NCBI GenBank assembly: GCA_029637525.1
Contig: CP072660.1
Coordinates: 1,699,612 to 1,763,611 of the forward strand
Direction: 5' to 3'
DNA length: 64,000 bases
DNA from: Desulfurococcaceae archaeon MEX13E-LK6-19
GTDB taxonomy: Archaea > Thermoproteota > Thermoprotei_A > Sulfolobales > Desulfurococcaceae
The translations under genes were made by a program, and so were the position numbers. A model generated the notes under the pieces. The model saw nothing but the letters and a program-made list of their open reading frames with translations. It was not told where the DNA came from and ran no database searches. Positions 51,518 to 58,236 of this stretch are shown one piece after another (position 1 is the stretch's first letter; the number at the start of each line of letters is the position of its first letter).

Positions 51518-51653
51518 AACATGCTCATATATTGGAGTGTACAGGCTAGCTAGTTATTCTATTCAATAATAGCTGAGTTTTTGCTTACAAGAAATATTTA
51601 TATACTTTAAAAGAGAACGATATATTACGGATTATTGTATGTGGCGTTAGTTC

Positions 51654-51833
51654 ATGATAAGACATCATTCCATAATACCCATAACTTTATTACTTCTACT
51701 AATTGTCTCGTCTTTATTATTTTTCGACAACAATAACGGTTTCAGAAACACCTCCACCACCTCATACAGCTGTATCTCTTCACCTACATGTAGGCTGCGA
51801 CTTCGAGAAGAATTCGGTAGAAAACTAGGGTAA
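51654..51833 (+). CDS. small secreted or membrane-anchored peptide (59 residues)
   Basis: ATG 51654 to TAA 51833. The N-terminus MIRHHSIIPITLLLLL plus IVSSLLFF is a textbook signal peptide or anchor: positive start and a 17-residue hydrophobic core. The mature part is polar and Ser/Thr-rich, with two Cys seven residues apart (SCISSPTC), then a basic stretch RLRLREEFGRKLG. A TATA box TTTATATA (51597-51604) stands about 50 bases upstream of the ATG, giving a leader of about 25 bases. Only 25 bases separate it from the first membrane-protein gene, so co-transcription is likely. No family is recognised. Confidence 0.6.
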   Translation: MIRHHSIIPITLLLLLIVSSLLFFDNNNGFRNTSTTSYSCISSPTCRLRLREEFGRKLG

Positions 51834-51858
51834 TATATACTGAAAGGGTGGTTTCAGC

Positions 51859-52590
51859 ATGGTTTTAAATGGCGAAGAGTGTATGAGTGCTAAGCTGATA
51901 TATTTGTTGACCAAATTCTTTCTACGTTTACATTATGTGATGCTTTTACTTGTCTTGCATCTCATGCTTGTCCTGCTTTTCCCAGCCTTAGCTTTTATAC
52001 CAATCCCAATATATCCTATTGTCATAGTTTTTCCACTTGGTCCTTTATCTCTTCTCCATACTTCAGCTCTAATCATGATGTACTGTAGTAACGGAGTATG
52101 GGTTTTTTCGAAAATAGTGTTCCTAATAATACTGAAAGCTTTGATCTACTTATCTTTGAGGAACTCTAAACTATTAGGTTATTCGACTGCAAAGGTATTG
52201 ATAGCTGCATCATCCGTGGTTATTTCTATATTCATTATTACTACTATATATTGTTGTTATACTACCTCATTTAGAACTATCATAAATCATCTATTGTTCG
52301 GTATAGCTATTACTCTACATCTGGACTTGTCTACATTTAGCTACGTAAAGTTTAGAGACTCTGTTAGAGGAGATGCTAGCCCCGCGTGGATACCAGTACT
52401 GGTATCTTTATGGACCATATCACCATGGCTAACTGGATTATTAGGTTGTTTCACATTATTTATTTTTAATGGAATACCTATACTAATGATTATCCTGATT
52501 ATAACGACATTTATACATTTATTGTACTTATTATACTATTATCGTGTATCCCCGTTTAAACAAATAATAAATGGAAAACTATTGTTCTAA
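51859..52590 (+). CDS. island membrane protein A (family-1 paralogue)
   Basis: The 243 residues have about six hydrophobic segments. Three blocks recur in the neighbouring genes: FFLRLHYV near residue 21, a PLGP turn before the second helix pair, and DLSTFSYVKFRDSVRGDASPAW around residue 155-176 followed by a helix with LWTISPW. A GGTGG site lies 8-12 bases upstream of the ATG. It directly follows the small secreted ORF. No catalytic or nucleotide-binding motif is visible. Related most closely to the genes at 53406 and 55353. Unknown function; a receptor, channel or immunity-type membrane protein are all possible. Confidence 0.82.
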   Translation: MVLNGEECMSAKLIYLLTKFFLRLHYVMLLLVLHLMLVLLFPALAFIPIPIYPIVIVFPLGPLSLLHTSALIMMYCSNGVWVFSKIVFLIILKALIYLSLRNSKLLGYSTAKVLIAASSVVISIFIITTIYCCYTTSFRTIINHLLFGIAITLHLDLSTFSYVKFRDSVRGDASPAWIPVLVSLWTISPWLTGLLGCFTLFIFNGIPILMIILIITTFIHLLYLLYYYRVSPFKQIINGKLLF

Positions 52591-52711
52591 GAATAATATA
52601 ATACATATAAGAAACAAACACAAGAGTTTATAATAAGCATAAACAGGTGACTTATCTCAATAACGCATTAAGAATCTCGGCATTAAACCAGATCTTAGAA
52701 CAAACACCAAG

Positions 52712-53413
52712 GTGATAAATACGTCTTCAAATACTGAATCTGGTTTTCCTAGTCTTCTCATCAAGATTAACTTGTACCAGCATTTTGTGGCATTCATGCT
52801 TTTTCCCTTGATGGTGCTTCTCCCATTTACGATCTACCTCTTTTTCCCACTACTATTACTCTTATTCATAGGGCCGGCCCTACTCTTTGCAGCACCTTTG
52901 ACACTAACTTTACTTGTTACACTTGAGGACTTCAAAGGACCATACTTGATGATCATCTACATTGTATACTATATATCCGGAATCCTAGCTTTGATTCTCG
53001 TTACTGCAAGCTACTTTCTCTATAGAGGTGCTCTAAAGTGCATGGAATCACGTAGATGGCTTATAGTACTACCGATCATATGGGCTTATCCAATACCGAT
53101 CATGGCCTATACTGTAGTTACTCACTATGAATATTTCCTAAAAGCTTTGATGGGGGATAAAGAAGTATTTGGAGGATATCATTTTCCCGGAGCTTGGGGA
53201 ATGTTGTTACTCCTAATTTTCATAGGGTTAATTATAGCAATAGTATATGCAACTATAAACATATATGTGCATATAAAGCTTGTCAGACACCATTATATCT
53301 GCAAAGAACAATCTATCAGCAGACCAACAACTACTACATACCAAAAGAAGGGTGTGGAGCAGATACATAAAGGTGCTGAAGAAAAGATTTTAGAGGTATT
53401 TAGGAATGCTTAG
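52712..53413 (+). CDS. island membrane protein B (family-2 paralogue)
   Basis: The 233 residues have about five helices and a longer polar C-terminal tail (TTTTYQKKGVEQIHKGAEEKILEV). The shared LH-type block is INLYQHFVAF near residue 16, the GP block is FIGPALLFAAPLTLTLL, and the third block is LYRGALKCMESRRWLIVLPIIW. A loop EYFLKALMGDKEVFGGYHFPGAWG precedes the last helix; the same loop is preserved in the remnant at 55163. The GTG start (52712) overlaps a GGTGAT site, so the real start is uncertain. Its stop overlaps the next ATG by eight bases. Confidence 0.8.
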   Translation: MINTSSNTESGFPSLLIKINLYQHFVAFMLFPLMVLLPFTIYLFFPLLLLLFIGPALLFAAPLTLTLLVTLEDFKGPYLMIIYIVYYISGILALILVTASYFLYRGALKCMESRRWLIVLPIIWAYPIPIMAYTVVTHYEYFLKALMGDKEVFGGYHFPGAWGMLLLLIFIGLIIAIVYATINIYVHIKLVRHHYICKEQSISRPTTTTYQKKGVEQIHKGAEEKILEVFRNA

Positions 53414-54167
53414 AAGTAACGGTGAAAACCAAACACTTCTTGCTAAAATAGCTAATTTCTTTCTCTATCTTCACTGGCTAGCTTCATTCTTAGTGATTAC
53501 TGCTCCTTTCACTATCTTTATTGTTAAATATACTCTCTTTCACCACTATCAATACCCCTATACAGTCAATATTATAAACATAATAGTTTACCTTACTTTC
53601 GCAATAGGACCGATAGCTTTCTCTCTCCCTATAACCTTTTTCTTCTACAAGACCTTTTTTCTAATAGTAATGTTCAGGAGGACATGGAGTTACTACATAA
53701 TCGTTTCCGTAATTCTCATCCTTACTGTTATGATGAAAGCTATTATATGTTATTTAGTCAAGGGATCTAAGATACGTAGATGGAGTGCACCTGCATTTCT
53801 ATTAATTGCAACATTATACACTATACCATCTATCATGTCTATAGAGGCAACATTGTATCATGTTTACCACCTTATTACCACAGCTACCGGGGCCTTAATT
53901 ATATCTGTAGGATTTGACTTAGCGGTGTTTAGCTACATCAAGTACAGAAGCGTTCTAAATGGTACTGCATCTCCTTTATGGTTGATTGTATTACCATTAC
54001 TATGGAGTATAAGTGCTTTTCCGTTCAGTATAACACCTACAGGATCATTCCTATGGCATATACTAATGATGTTATTTATAATAATAGCCGTAACACAAAT
54101 AACACTACACACAATGCTCTATAAGATAATTAAAAAGAAAACACTATCAATACAAAACACGGGTTGA
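53406..54167 (+). CDS. island membrane protein C (family-1 paralogue)
   Basis: The 253-residue membrane protein has about six helices. It shares with genes A and E the N-terminal FFLYLHWL block, AIGPIAFSLPITFF, and the diagnostic DLAVFSYIKYRSVLNGTASPLW followed by LPLLWSIS. The basic tail is YKIIKKKT. It overlaps the family-2 gene B by eight bases (ATGCTTAG), so the pair should be translated together. No other function can be read. Confidence 0.82.
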   Translation: MLRSNGENQTLLAKIANFFLYLHWLASFLVITAPFTIFIVKYTLFHHYQYPYTVNIINIIVYLTFAIGPIAFSLPITFFFYKTFFLIVMFRRTWSYYIIVSVILILTVMMKAIICYLVKGSKIRRWSAPAFLLIATLYTIPSIMSIEATLYHVYHLITTATGALIISVGFDLAVFSYIKYRSVLNGTASPLWLIVLPLLWSISAFPFSITPTGSFLWHILMMLFIIIAVTQITLHTMLYKIIKKKTLSIQNTG

Positions 54168-54320
54168 CTATATAAATAAAGCATTTAATGCTATTAAGTC
54201 TAGAGCACAGAACCACTACATAGTGTTTCTAGCATAGTATATGCTATGGAATAAAAATACAGCAGAACGTGAATACTATCTCCATGCGTTGGGATTTAAG
54301 TTATGGTTAGGGTGTCTTGA

Positions 54321-55082
54321 ATGAAGACTTTAGCCAAAAACCAGGCTACTATGAATTACAAAGGTGGTTTACCAATGAGTTTAAGTGGTAAGGGACAACA
54401 AGCGTTTTCTTCAACTATTTCTAGGAGACCCAATAGCCAAATGAAAGGGTTTATCAATACTCTTAGTAAACTCCATAGAGCACTATTGTTTTTTACGTAT
54501 GTCTTTGGTTTTACACAAACTATACTGAATTTTTGGCCAGTTTGCATACTTCTTCCACCTATAGGGATCCTGTATTCAGTACTTGAAATAGCCCATATTA
54601 TTCTCGCTACTGGGCCTGGATCAATTTTGTATTATGCATACACTTCATGGGCTTGGATAGTGAAGCTTAATCCTAATCTAGGATTTGTCCGTAACCCGTT
54701 TATAAGATACCTACGCCTCCTCTTCCCACTAGCTCTCCCTATCCCCGCTTACATCGAGTATAAACTCTTTAATAACATGCTGAAAGGAGCGATCAAACCT
54801 AGAACCCTACTACTAATATGGATTACAGGACTCCTACTATACTCACCATTTCCCCTAACCTACACAATATTCACAATCATCTGCATCACCCAAGTCCCTT
54901 CCCATCAATGCGAAGCCTCGATACTACCCCCTATCCTCAGATTCTTCTTCATCGATCCCTTCTACCTCCCAGAAGCCACATTCTACATGATCACAATAAT
55001 CAGCTTCTACATAGCAATAGCCTCCTTACCCTGGTTCTACAAGAAAATAAAACACATAGAAATACCAACCACTAATCACTAA
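54321..55082 (+). CDS. island membrane protein D (family-2-like paralogue)
   Basis: The 253 residues have a 45-residue polar N-terminus, then TLSKLHRALLFFTYVFGF, an ATGPGSILYYAY block and PAYIEYKLFNNMLKGAIKPRTLLLIW. About five helices follow, ending LPWFYKKIKHIEI. It is most like the frameshifted gene F (LHRRLF, SKGPGGVMYYAH, KAAIRGVIKYKW). GGGTGT lies shortly upstream of ATG 54321; a second in-frame ATG at 54375 is possible, and the first 40 residues have no match in the paralogues. Unknown function. Confidence 0.78.
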   Translation: MKTLAKNQATMNYKGGLPMSLSGKGQQAFSSTISRRPNSQMKGFINTLSKLHRALLFFTYVFGFTQTILNFWPVCILLPPIGILYSVLEIAHIILATGPGSILYYAYTSWAWIVKLNPNLGFVRNPFIRYLRLLFPLALPIPAYIEYKLFNNMLKGAIKPRTLLLIWITGLLLYSPFPLTYTIFTIICITQVPSHQCEASILPPILRFFFIDPFYLPEATFYMITIISFYIAIASLPWFYKKIKHIEIPTTNH

Positions 55083-55162
55083 ATGAGAGCTATCAACAAG
55101 TTATTATAGAGATACTCGTAAGACAGGGCCTAGATGAGTGAAGCTAAATCTGTGTAAAGTAA

Positions 55163-55360
55163 TATATTACAAATGGAGAGTACTTCCTAAGGGCTTTACG
55201 TGGAGAAGCGTTTAGAAGCTACCATTTCCCAGGAGTTATAAATATGCTGATGATTCTAACCTTTATAGTCTTCTTCATAGAATCTATATACACGATCATA
55301 AACATATATGTACATGTAAAACTCTACAAGTACTATAAGCTAGGGTTGCGGGATGAATAA
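55163..55360 (+). pseudogene. C-terminal remnant of a family-2 island gene
   Basis: After an in-frame stop at 55160-55162 the frame reads YITNGEYFLRALRGEAF, then RSYHFPGVINMLMIL and a helix ending TIINIYVHVKLYKYYK, stop at 55358. This parallels the end of gene B (EYFLKALMGDKEVF, GGYHFPGAWGMLL, INIYVHIKL). The N-terminal two thirds are missing and no start codon precedes it. Its stop overlaps the ATG of gene E by eight bases, exactly as intact gene B overlaps gene C. Confidence 0.72.
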
Positions 55361-56111
55361 GTCTAAATTCTTGAATAATTTAACAGATTTTTATCTTAAG
55401 GTACATTATGTGACATCTATCTACTTCTTTATCACGCCCTTCATAATTTTAAGTCCTTTAGCTGCCTACTTTGTTTTACCTCTTCTTTGCTTGTTGTTTT
55501 TCTTTCCTATAGGCTCATTATCATTTCCTTTATCGTTTCTCATTCTCTCACACATGATGTTATTCGGGTTGTTTCCCCATTTCTCCTTTATGTTATCTAA
55601 TACAATGATGATAGCCGTGATAGTAGCCTTATTCTCGGTAGCATTAATATTGAAGTTTGCCGTGCATAGGAGTTTGAAGAGACATAAGTTGGGGAATTAT
55701 CCAGCTTCTATAATAGTGGTCTTAACGACTCTATTATTCTCGCTTATTACCTCTATTGTCGCCAAGATAATTGCTCCATATCTCGACGTTATTGCAATAG
55801 CTGAACTGACTTCAGTACTTCTATTCAACAGCTTATCAATCGATTTAACCGTATTCAGTTATGTTAAGTACCGTGATGCAATTAAAGGGATAATATCCCG
55901 GGTATGGGTATCCTGGCTAGCAATCTTATGGTCAACTGTATTGTGGATGCCCTATGGTATGTACCTTGTCCTCTTCTTCTCCCCATCAATATACATTACA
56001 ATAGAATGGGACATATACGGGGTACTTATGACAATCGCTTGGATTGCAGTAACAGTGCTACAGATAACATACGCTATTATATCCTATAAGCAATACAAGA
56101 CAAATACATAA
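55353..56111 (+). CDS. island membrane protein E (family-1 paralogue)
   Basis: The 252-residue protein has about six helices. The N-terminus MNKSKFLNNLTDFYLKVHYV carries the shared block. FPIGSLSFPLSFL is the GP-like block, and IDLTVFSYVKYRDAIKGIISRVW with LAILWSTV is the diagnostic family-1 block. The tail is polar. It overlaps the remnant of a family-2 gene by eight bases at its start, which suggests that the original pair lost its first member. Unknown function. Confidence 0.82.
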   Translation: MNKSKFLNNLTDFYLKVHYVTSIYFFITPFIILSPLAAYFVLPLLCLLFFFPIGSLSFPLSFLILSHMMLFGLFPHFSFMLSNTMMIAVIVALFSVALILKFAVHRSLKRHKLGNYPASIIVVLTTLLFSLITSIVAKIIAPYLDVIAIAELTSVLLFNSLSIDLTVFSYVKYRDAIKGIISRVWVSWLAILWSTVLWMPYGMYLVLFFSPSIYITIEWDIYGVLMTIAWIAVTVLQITYAIISYKQYKTNT

Positions 56112-56270
56112 AGATCTCAAACATAAACCCCAATATCAGGTCCAATCTATATTATCGCTATACTGTGTAGCGTTATCACTCTATCAGTCTATCCTCTCAT
56201 CTTTCCAATTAATCATCCTATTCATTGTTATTACTACTCTTCTCTCGTAGAGTTTACAAAACCGTCCTTC

Positions 56271-56384
56271 CACCACATGCCAGGCTACTAAGATTACAAT
56301 ACATGGAGCATTATAGGTACTGTAAATTGAGTAGATGCACAAGGAGAGACTTTGCCTATGAGCTAGAATACTATACATTGTAAA
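56271..56384 (+). pseudogene. small C-terminal remnant of a family-2-like island gene
   Basis: An unstarted frame reads PPHARLLRLQYMEHYRYCK and continues to a stop at 56382-56384. LQYMEHYRYCK resembles IQYMEQYRQFK at the end of gene F. Upstream sequence in other frames is hydrophobic but broken. The rest of the 375-base gap (56112-56486) shows only a probable promoter for gene F (TTTTTTATCT near 56452). Confidence 0.5.
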
Positions 56385-56486
56385 TCTTATTTAGAAGAAT
56401 TCCAATTGATAATAGCCAAGAATCTTAATATAATTTCTTGTTCATAATATTTTTTATCTAGGGTTAAACAAAGAGGCTTAGAGAAC

Positions 56487-57201
56487 ATGGATAATGATAA
56501 TAAACATAGTTGTGGATATGATGTTATAGAGTTTTTCTCAAGGCTTCATAGACGCTTATTTGTTTTCGCAATACTGTATCTTATATTTCAATTCACAATT
56601 CATACCTATTACTACACCGCTTACAATGTATTTGCCTCCCTGGCTTAAACTCATATTAATACTCATGTTGTGGCTGTCTTTTCCTCCGCTCTTTGTATAC
56701 CAGTTGATTCTTAGCAAGGGTCCTGGTGGAGTGATGTACTATGCACATGTTATAAACATGCTATGTATACTATATCTTCTCACAATAGAGATGCTACAAA
56801 ATAGTGTCTACACATTATCACCAAGCTTGTTTCTAGTTTTACCATTGCTTATACACCCTGCTCCACTAATGCTCGTATTCATAACTCTCGGGTACCTAGC
56901 ATTTAAGGCGGCGATAAGAGGAGTAATTAAATATAAATGGTTATTCATAATTTGGCGCCTAGGCCCTCTACTCTACATAGCTACACTAGCAGTTTTACTA
57001 GTCATTGTTATTATTAAAGTAATAATAAGTCCTTTCCCGACTAAGACATATCATTACTTCTTTCCTCCGCAACTTGGTCTCATAATATTTTTCTTCTACT
57101 ATGCAGTCCCAGGACCATTCATATCCTTAGCAACACTACCAGAGTACATACAATACATGGAACAATACAGACAATTCAAGACAAGAACGCAGAATGAATG
57201 A
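56487..57201 (+). pseudogene. island membrane protein F, frameshifted (family-2-like paralogue)
   Basis: From ATG 56487 the frame reads MDNDNKHSCGYDVIEFFSRLHRRLFVFAI and stops at 56646-56648. The rest of the protein continues in the next frame (PLTMYLPPWLKLILI onward, SKGPGGVMYYAH, KAAIRGVIKYKWLFIIW, IQYMEQYRQFK) and stops at 57199. Joining the two between about 56600 and 56645 restores a protein collinear with gene D. A single-base change or a sequence error would both explain it; a TTG at 56560 could start the second frame but would lose the N-terminal block. The stop overlaps the next ATG by eight bases. Confidence 0.7.
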
Positions 57202-57305
57202 ACTCGAATTCCTGAATATTTTTTCGCATCAAAGCGCACTATTTTGTATTTCTCATAACATTCCCCTATCTCTTCACTACTGTTTCCAGCCAAGAGTCAT
57301 TATAG
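57194..57305 (+). pseudogene. N-terminal remnant of a family-1 island gene
   Basis: ATG 57194 overlaps the stop of gene F by eight bases (ATGAATGA). It begins MNELEFLN, like gene E (MNKSKFLN). A frame change at the six-T run 57219-57224 then gives FFRIKAHYFVFLITFPYLFT, the family-1 N-terminal block, before a stop at 57303. Nothing further is recognisable up to 57495. Confidence 0.6.
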
Positions 57306-57495: not shown

Positions 57496-58236
57496 TTGTC
57501 ATCAAAAGTTATTGGGCGAGGTAGATGTATTAAGTGTGGAAGAGAGGGATCTGTTGTTCTTAAAGAGATCTCTGGCAGGATCTATGTCTATATTAAGCAC
57601 GGTCGTGAATGGTGTTACCTGGGTCCGTTAGAGAAAGTTGATTTATCAAGTATTATCATTGGTGTTAGAGATTACCACACCTTTACCACTAAATTAGCAG
57701 AATACCTTAGAGTCAGAATTGGTGATGTAGGAGTGAAGGTCTCTACACCATTTATCATTGGTTTAGCACTGTTATTAGCAGCATATGGTATAGGGCTAGG
57801 AGGCTATGGTAACTATGTGTTGGCTATGGTATTATTGTCTACATTATCGTTCTTACTCTCAATAGCAGTTTATGAGAATACCTATGCGAGACACCAAGAA
57901 TACGGTACGCTATCAAGGATCCTGTCTAGAGGACTCAAACTATACATCCTATTAACCATAGCACTAACCATAATAGCCATAATCACAACAATACCATTAA
58001 TATCACCACTCAGATTCAAGTTCACATACATTATACCATTGCATGCAGGACATCAAGACATCGAGACCACAATCGAAGAGCCCGGCATACTACCCGGTTC
58101 AAGAATATCTGTTGGCCCAGCCCATACCGCTACTGGAGTTGAAACCTACGCGTTCATAAACATAACGATCCCAGTCTCATCAATTATAATAGCGTCTCTA
58201 CTAACAACATACCTTTCAAGACCATTATCTAAATAG
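57496..58236 (+). CDS. membrane protein with N-terminal CxxC zinc-ribbon-like motif
   Basis: The 246 residues begin GRGRCIKCGREGSVVLKEISGRIYVYIKHGREWCYLGPL. One CxxC and a later Cys suggest a half zinc ribbon of the type seen in archaeal proteins with a CxxCG...YxxHG start. Membrane helices are near 88-105, 110-130, 148-170 and 222-240, with a polar extracytoplasmic loop (HAGHQDIETTIEEPGILPG) between the last two. TTG 57499 or the GTC-preceding start at 57496 are possible. It follows the membrane-protein island on the same strand but shares none of its blocks. Unknown function. Confidence 0.75.
   Translation: MSSKVIGRGRCIKCGREGSVVLKEISGRIYVYIKHGREWCYLGPLEKVDLSSIIIGVRDYHTFTTKLAEYLRVRIGDVGVKVSTPFIIGLALLLAAYGIGLGGYGNYVLAMVLLSTLSFLLSIAVYENTYARHQEYGTLSRILSRGLKLYILLTIALTIIAIITTIPLISPLRFKFTYIIPLHAGHQDIETTIEEPGILPGSRISVGPAHTATGVETYAFINITIPVSSIIIASLLTTYLSRPLSK

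What the first reader, a model, noticed from the sequence alone, without database searches (positions are those of the whole stretch)
51654..57305. Tandem array of a membrane-protein family of unknown function led by a secreted peptide
Seen directly: six adjacent frames (A-F) of about 230-253 codons, all multi-pass membrane proteins with no catalytic motif. They share three blocks: an N-terminal LH-type block (FFLRLHYV, FFLYLHWL, FYLKVHYV, TLSKLHRA, FFSRLHRR), a Gly-Pro turn (PLGP, AIGP, ATGPGS, SKGPGG) and a basic loop before a Trp helix (SYVKFRDSVRG, SYIKYRSVLNG, IKGIIS, KGAIKP, IRGVIK). A 59-residue ORF with a signal peptide and two Cys sits 25 bases upstream of the first. Inference: a lineage-specific, fast-evolving system. 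Peptide toxin/immunity, signalling peptide/receptors, or an envelope complex would all fit; the sequence does not choose between them.
Basis: partly seen in the sequence, partly recalled or inferred. Interest (0 to 1): 0.78.

Follow-up and report, generated by a model that had tools for sequence, protein, structure and literature searches.

The report
Decayed archaeal sugar-enzyme/membrane-protein gene array
This stretch of an archaeal chromosome is a worn-down tandem array of an undescribed gene pair, a secreted sugar-cutting enzyme plus a membrane protein; the enzyme copies are all dead here (the supposed "secreted peptide" is one of the wrecks), while most of the membrane-protein copies are still intact.

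Summary
The six membrane-protein frames are real, but the picture changes. A, C and E form one orphan family, B shares its core motif, and D and F form a second family. F is frameshifted. The 59-aa "secreted peptide" is not an independent gene. It is the signal-peptide start and last ~20 codons of a dead glycoside-hydrolase (GH) gene. A profile of the 3' end of that GH gene, built only from other genomes, scanned over both strands of the 64-kb window gives its three best sites upstream of A (26.9 bits), D (20.2) and F (8.5). The next site scores 0.6. Another genome (G052) keeps the intact pair: a GH with a signal peptide, 8 bp before an A-type gene. The Guaymas genome G011 has dead GH pieces before its B and A genes and after F. 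A truncated B copy precedes E.

So the window holds a decaying array of [secreted clan GH-A glycosidase + multi-pass membrane partner] modules. The enzyme repeatedly dies and the partner's reading frame survives (dN/dS 0.28-0.45). The membrane family has no database or fold match. Function is inferred: an orphan immunity-like role is slightly preferred over envelope-glycan handling. The peptide-signalling reading is rejected.

The parts
51597..51604 (+). TATA-like box (TTTATATA), 50 nt before the dead GH start: probable retained promoter of the array
   Evidence: sequence read directly; inference
51654..51857 (+). dead, internally deleted GH gene; contains the '59-aa secreted peptide' ORF (51654-51833): signal peptide, PPPP..V.LHL in another frame, then the GH 3' end (LREEFGRKLG*YILKGWF)
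   Evidence: frameshift-aware alignment 58 vs 31.4+-4.2, 1/2000 shuffles; 3'-end DNA profile from other genomes: best site of the whole window at 51801, 26.9 bits
51859..52590 (+). gene A, A-type multi-pass membrane protein
52629..52673 (+). possible GH remnant before B (YNKHKQVTYLNNALR ~ HSEENQVTYINEAFK); weak
   Evidence: 0/300 shuffles with the C-terminal query but 82/2000 with the whole query: inconclusive
52712..53413 (+). gene B, membrane protein sharing the SYxxYR...W...LW block with A/C/E; 53% identical to a B gene in G011
53406..54167 (+). gene C, A-type membrane protein; start overlaps the end of B by 8 nt
54169..54385 (+). dead 3' end of a GH gene (one stop, one frameshift)
   Evidence: score 169 vs 30+-4, z ~31-36; found independently at E 2e-5 and 6e-5, 8e-8
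54375..55082 (+). gene D, D/F-type membrane protein (ORF opens at 54321; ATG 54375 lies inside the last codons of the dead GH, whose GGTGG may serve as ribosome-binding site)
   Evidence: start choice is inference
55166..55360 (+). truncated dead copy of B (C-terminal ~60 codons), overlapping E by 8 nt as B overlaps C
   Evidence: blastp E 2e-15; z 19-25; HMM E 9e-17
55353..56111 (+). gene E, A-type membrane protein
56339..56395 (+). small GH 3'-end remnant before F (TRRDFAYELEYYTL)
   Evidence: third-best site of the whole window, 8.5 bits vs 0.6 for the next
56487..57201 (+). gene F, D/F-type membrane protein broken by one frameshift near 56640-56650

Best explanation
The region is a degenerating tandem array of a two-gene module: a secreted clan GH-A glycoside hydrolase followed, 8 nt or less downstream, by a small multi-pass membrane protein. 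In the window every GH copy is dead and reduced to 5' or 3' stumps. The '59-residue secreted peptide' is one stump: signal peptide fused to the 3' end by an internal deletion. Five membrane genes (A-E) stay open, F is frameshifted, and one extra B copy is truncated. Those steps are shown by sequence. Inferred mechanism: in the intact module one message makes a glycosidase, exported by its signal peptide, that cuts a surface or extracellular glycan, together with a membrane partner for the same envelope. Because the partner outlives the enzyme, duplicates, diverges fast and is patchily inherited, I think it most likely protects or adapts the cell's own envelope against this class of enzyme (orphan immunity-like). 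GH 3' ends probably persist because they carry the membrane gene's translation-initiation region. Anatomy about 0.9; immunity-like function about 0.35.
For: Intact pair in G052 (L011: GH 14972-13548 minus, TAA, 8 nt, A-type start 13539). The same 8-nt spacing occurs in JALWFJ010000106 (L015), where the GH is frameshifted. In G011 (L012) GH wrecks lie before B (z 15), before the A-type gene (z 36) and after F (z 9). Window remnants were found by four routes. The GH is clan GH-A: Pfam GH1 above cut-off, invariant NE (GNELN in most) and ETG/EIG motifs, TIM barrel with Foldseek E ~1e-10 to GH1, GH39 PslG, GH5_18. Signal or anchor segment in L011 and in the stumps of the window, L012 and L015, but not in solitary L046, L047, L048. 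The A-type clade that holds A/C/E, L011, L015 and L012 is the one whose loci carry GH; the sister clade (L013a/b, L086, L087) has none detected. Membrane genes dN/dS 0.28-0.45.
Against: Only one intact pair is known and no substrate is known. The 51654 remnant is convincing mainly by its 3' end and position: its whole-length score is reached by 1 of 522 unrelated window tiles. The remnant before B is inconclusive. Immunity to glycosidases is usually given by soluble inhibitors or by target modification, rarely by bare multi-pass proteins (general knowledge). The GH family also exists alone, without a membrane partner. Array decay (F, the second B) could mean that the membrane genes too are on the way out.
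Confidence: 0.6

Rival explanations
1. Envelope or exopolysaccharide processing: the secreted GH trims or releases a surface glycan while the membrane protein takes part in its export or anchoring; no conflict is involved.
For: The GH fold is close to PslG, a periplasmic exopolysaccharide hydrolase; GH-membrane pair with conserved spacing; membrane proteins under purifying selection.
Against: No glycosyltransferase, flippase or export genes were seen beside the pair in L011, L012, L015 or the window; membrane genes persist after every local GH is dead, and the own-genome solitary GH (L048) has no signal peptide.
Confidence: 0.3
2. Nutrient use: a secreted glycosidase with a dedicated small sugar transporter, later reduced to the transporter.
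For: Secreted GH plus membrane protein in one unit; related archaea live on polysaccharides (general knowledge; abstract of PMC7729421 for Thermosphaera).
Against: No similarity to any transporter family in Pfam or NCBIfam and no PDB fold match; three divergent partner types would be needed.
Confidence: 0.15
3. Secreted peptide with receptors or immunity proteins, the 59-aa ORF being a functional gene.
For: The ORF has a signal peptide and a TATA-like box upstream; a stump could still be translated.
Against: Its N-terminus aligns with the GH signal region and its 3' part is the GH 3' end at the very place where GH ends precede membrane genes elsewhere; no conserved homologous peptide was found beside the relatives' genes.
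Confidence: 0.04
4. The whole array is junk: all membrane genes are relaxed remnants that happen to be open.
For: F frameshifted, B copy truncated, a fully decayed A-type gene in G036 (L014), low G+C (0.35), dN/dS rather high.
Against: Five ORFs of 233-253 codons are open although copies share only 25-33% identity, and pN is well below pS; neutral drift that shattered the GHs would have put stops in these too.
Confidence: 0.12

Closest known systems
Clan GH-A glycoside hydrolases (GH1, GH39 PslG, GH5_18, GH53)
   Same: TIM barrel, catalytic Asn-Glu and second Glu motifs, Foldseek E ~1e-10, GH1 Pfam hit above cut-off for the G052 protein
   Different: Only about 8-15% identity to solved members in the fold alignments; a 110-residue insert between strands 3 and 4; no curated NCBIfam cut-off reached; substrate unknown
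Effector-immunity pairs with orphan immunity genes (polymorphic toxin systems; PMC3482391)
   Same: Secreted enzyme gene first, small partner gene next, tandem duplicated partners retained after loss of the enzyme, patchy distribution
   Different: No polymorphic-toxin architecture, no shown toxicity, partner is a multi-pass membrane protein, no PADLOC match
VARTIG modules of Thermococcales (PMC8416519)
   Same: Lineage-specific archaeal module of a lead protein and variable downstream genes, function unknown, conflict role suspected
   Different: Ig-domain proteins, no glycosidase; no sequence relation shown
Archaeal peptidoglycan hydrolases that kill bacteria (PMC12352652)
   Same: Archaeal glycan-acting hydrolase as a possible weapon
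   Different: Different enzymes; no membrane partner array described in the abstract; here no target known

Membership tests
Clan GH-A glycoside hydrolase (the lost partner, intact in G052) | (beta/alpha)8 barrel | tested here: met
   AlphaFold model with core blocks mostly above 85-90 pLDDT; 727 Foldseek matches at E<=0.001, the listed ones being glycoside hydrolases of GH-A type
Clan GH-A glycoside hydrolase (the lost partner, intact in G052) | acid/base Glu after Asn on strand 4 and nucleophile Glu on strand 7 | tested here: met
   N293-E294 and E392 (METG/MEIG) invariant in six members; assignment by motif, not by assay
Clan GH-A glycoside hydrolase (the lost partner, intact in G052) | glycosidase activity | not testable with these tools
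   needs enzyme assay
   blastp E 1e-10 to 3e-7, z 4.8-7.9
   hhalign probability 0.3%; only a faint Y..F...L.G pattern in common
Toxin-immunity module | effector gene directly followed by cognate partner | tested here: met
   8-nt spacing in G052 and JALWFJ; overlap in G011; cognate interaction itself not tested
Toxin-immunity module | orphan partners retained after effector loss | tested here: met
   window and G011
Toxin-immunity module | effector harms cells lacking the partner | not testable with these tools
   needs experiment
Toxin-immunity module | match to known toxin, immunity or defence families | tested here: not met
   no PADLOC match for membrane proteins or GH, none in Pfam for the A-type proteins
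Known membrane transporter family | profile or fold match | tested here: not met
   no Pfam or NCBIfam hit; Foldseek best E 1.7, TM about 0.2
Secreted signalling or toxin peptide (59-aa ORF) | independent conserved gene | tested here: not met
   it is a GH stump

The most novel reading that the evidence does not exclude
An archaeal interference system in which a secreted glycosidase attacks the surface glycans of competitors and tandemly amplified multi-pass membrane proteins of a new family give immunity, so that lineages such as this one carry orphan immunity arrays after losing the weapon.
Probability: 0.25. Interest if true: 0.75.

Novelty: new variant of a known kind. Interest (0 to 1): 0.42.

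Why it matters
Very little is known of conflict or surface-glycan systems in hyperthermophilic Thermoproteota. The intact pair in G052 gives a defined, testable module (one enzyme, one membrane partner), and the repeated loss of the enzyme with survival of the partner is a pattern that asks for an explanation. It also warns that a small 'secreted peptide' ORF next to membrane genes can be a stump of a dead enzyme.

Tried and rejected
Viral origin: no relative of A1 in IMG/VR, no significant PHROG match, no viral fold match. Known transporter or defence family: none. B pieces as the source of the 59-aa ORF: no signal. GH remnant between A and B: inconclusive. Remnants in the solitary clade (L013, L086, L087, L088): none clear. 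B-type remnant in the E-F gap, suspected by eye: not significant; a small GH remnant was found there instead. CRISPR link: arrays or cas4 lie near three relatives' genes, but none was found near the window, G052 or G011 copies, so it is not taken as functional. A tree could not resolve the order of A, C and E.
Full report
Observation. The window lies in a 1.91-Mb single-contig archaeal genome at G000:C1:1699612-1763611. From memory, the lengths of related genomes such as G013, G022 and G041 match Staphylothermus and Ignisphaera, so the family is probably Desulfurococcaceae; this is an inference. A, C and E are true homologues and D and F are homologues. B shares the block SYxxYRxxxxxxxSRxWxxxLPxxW with A/C/E. 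D/F cannot be joined to A/C/E by profile comparison. F is split by a frameshift. B overlaps C by 8 nt (53406-53413).

Relatives. A profile of A, C and E finds the own three copies and sporadic relatives: G052, G011 (= QMWW01000092, Guaymas Basin Thermoprotei MAG), G031, G036 (decayed) and JALWFJ010000106. A wider profile adds G015, G030 and G024, in all 8 of 229 genomes of the class. D/F-type and B-type genes were found only in the window genome and in G011, among 147 genomes searched. No viral relative was found.

The missing partner. In G052 the A-type gene follows, after 8 nt, a 474-aa protein with a signal peptide and a glycosidase-like barrel. In JALWFJ the same gene stands at the same 8-nt distance but is frameshifted. 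It is a clan GH-A enzyme: Pfam GH1 above its cut-off for the G052 protein, PDB profile hits to GH1, GH53 and PslG, both Glu motifs invariant in six members, and a barrel model with Foldseek E near 1e-10 to GH1, GH39 and GH5_18. The GH family also occurs alone, e.g. at G000:C1:1183899-1184966 of the window's own genome, without a membrane neighbour and without a signal peptide.

Remnants in the window. A genome search with the G052 GH returned two pieces between C and D at 46% and 61% identity. A frameshift-tolerant alignment with dinucleotide shuffles gives 169 against 30+-4 for that gap. The gap before A, that is, the 59-aa ORF, gives 58 against 31+-4, reached by 1 of 2000 shuffles and by 1 of 522 unrelated tiles. 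The gap between D and E holds the end of a dead B gene (z 19-25), overlapping E by 8 nt exactly as B overlaps C. The most telling test uses a 57-nt profile of the GH 3' end made only from G052, JALWFJ and the two G011 copies. Scanned over both strands of the 64 kb it puts its three best sites at 51801 (26.9 bits), 54317 (20.2) and 56339 (8.5), with 0.6 for the next. These lie upstream of A, D and F. The 59-aa ORF therefore runs from a GH signal peptide into a GH 3' end. In D the start codon sits inside the last GH codons, and the Trp-Phe codons (GGTGGTTT) look like its ribosome-binding site. This may explain why 3' stumps survive (inference).

The same decay elsewhere. G011 carries GH wrecks before its B gene (z 15), before its A-type gene (z 36) and after its F gene (z 9), while the three membrane frames are open. 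A-type genes of the window, G052, G011 and JALWFJ form one well-supported side of the tree (96/98). The other side (G031, G015, G030) shows no GH trace. The signal or anchor segment is present in the four partner-linked GHs or stumps, and absent in three of four solitary ones.

Selection. dN/dS for membrane genes is 0.28 to 0.45 where dS is measurable. The GH of JALWFJ against G052 shows about 0.06 with near-saturated dS. Membrane genes are thus constrained but quick, and they stay open while the enzyme copies shatter.

Function. No database or fold match exists for the membrane family. The A model is moderate (pLDDT 69.5, pTM 0.66) and all-helical. H25 is kept in all seven members of the first alignment, and G61, D156, Y162, R166, W185 and Y228 are invariant in nine. 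Survival of the partner without the enzyme, tandem divergence and patchiness fit an immunity-like role best. Envelope-glycan handling is nearly as good, nutrient uptake less so. This step is inference. A literature search for such a module found only analogues.

Verdict. It is a decaying tandem array of an undescribed glycosidase-plus-membrane-protein module, of moderate interest because the intact pair in G052 makes function testable.

Noticed in passing
L013 803-1143 and 2672-2874; L015 93-829; L086 562-1122: CRISPR arrays (L013, L015) or a cas4 gene (L086) lie within about 2 kb of relatives' membrane genes; not seen near the window, G052 or G011 copies.
   Followed up: partly
L048 6636-7106 and 7873-8970; L012 2-325: The solitary GH of the window's own genome and the G011 array both lie near the same Tfx-like DNA-binding gene, perhaps an ancestral location.
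   Followed up: no
window 57496-58236; L098 2770-4831: Zn-ribbon membrane protein downstream of the array; its 78%-identical orthologue in sister genome G006 has a vapBC-like pair, not the array, on that side, so the array is probably a variable island.
   Followed up: partly
L014 5183-5774 (G036:C28): A heavily decayed A-type gene (many stops, z 8) in another genus.
   Followed up: partly
L011 8946-10025: A second secreted glycosidase (GH99-like, Pfam E 2e-12) about 3 kb from the intact GH-membrane pair in G052.
   Followed up: no
window 56640-56650: Single frameshift in otherwise intact gene F; recent loss, sequencing error and recoding cannot be told apart.
   Followed up: no
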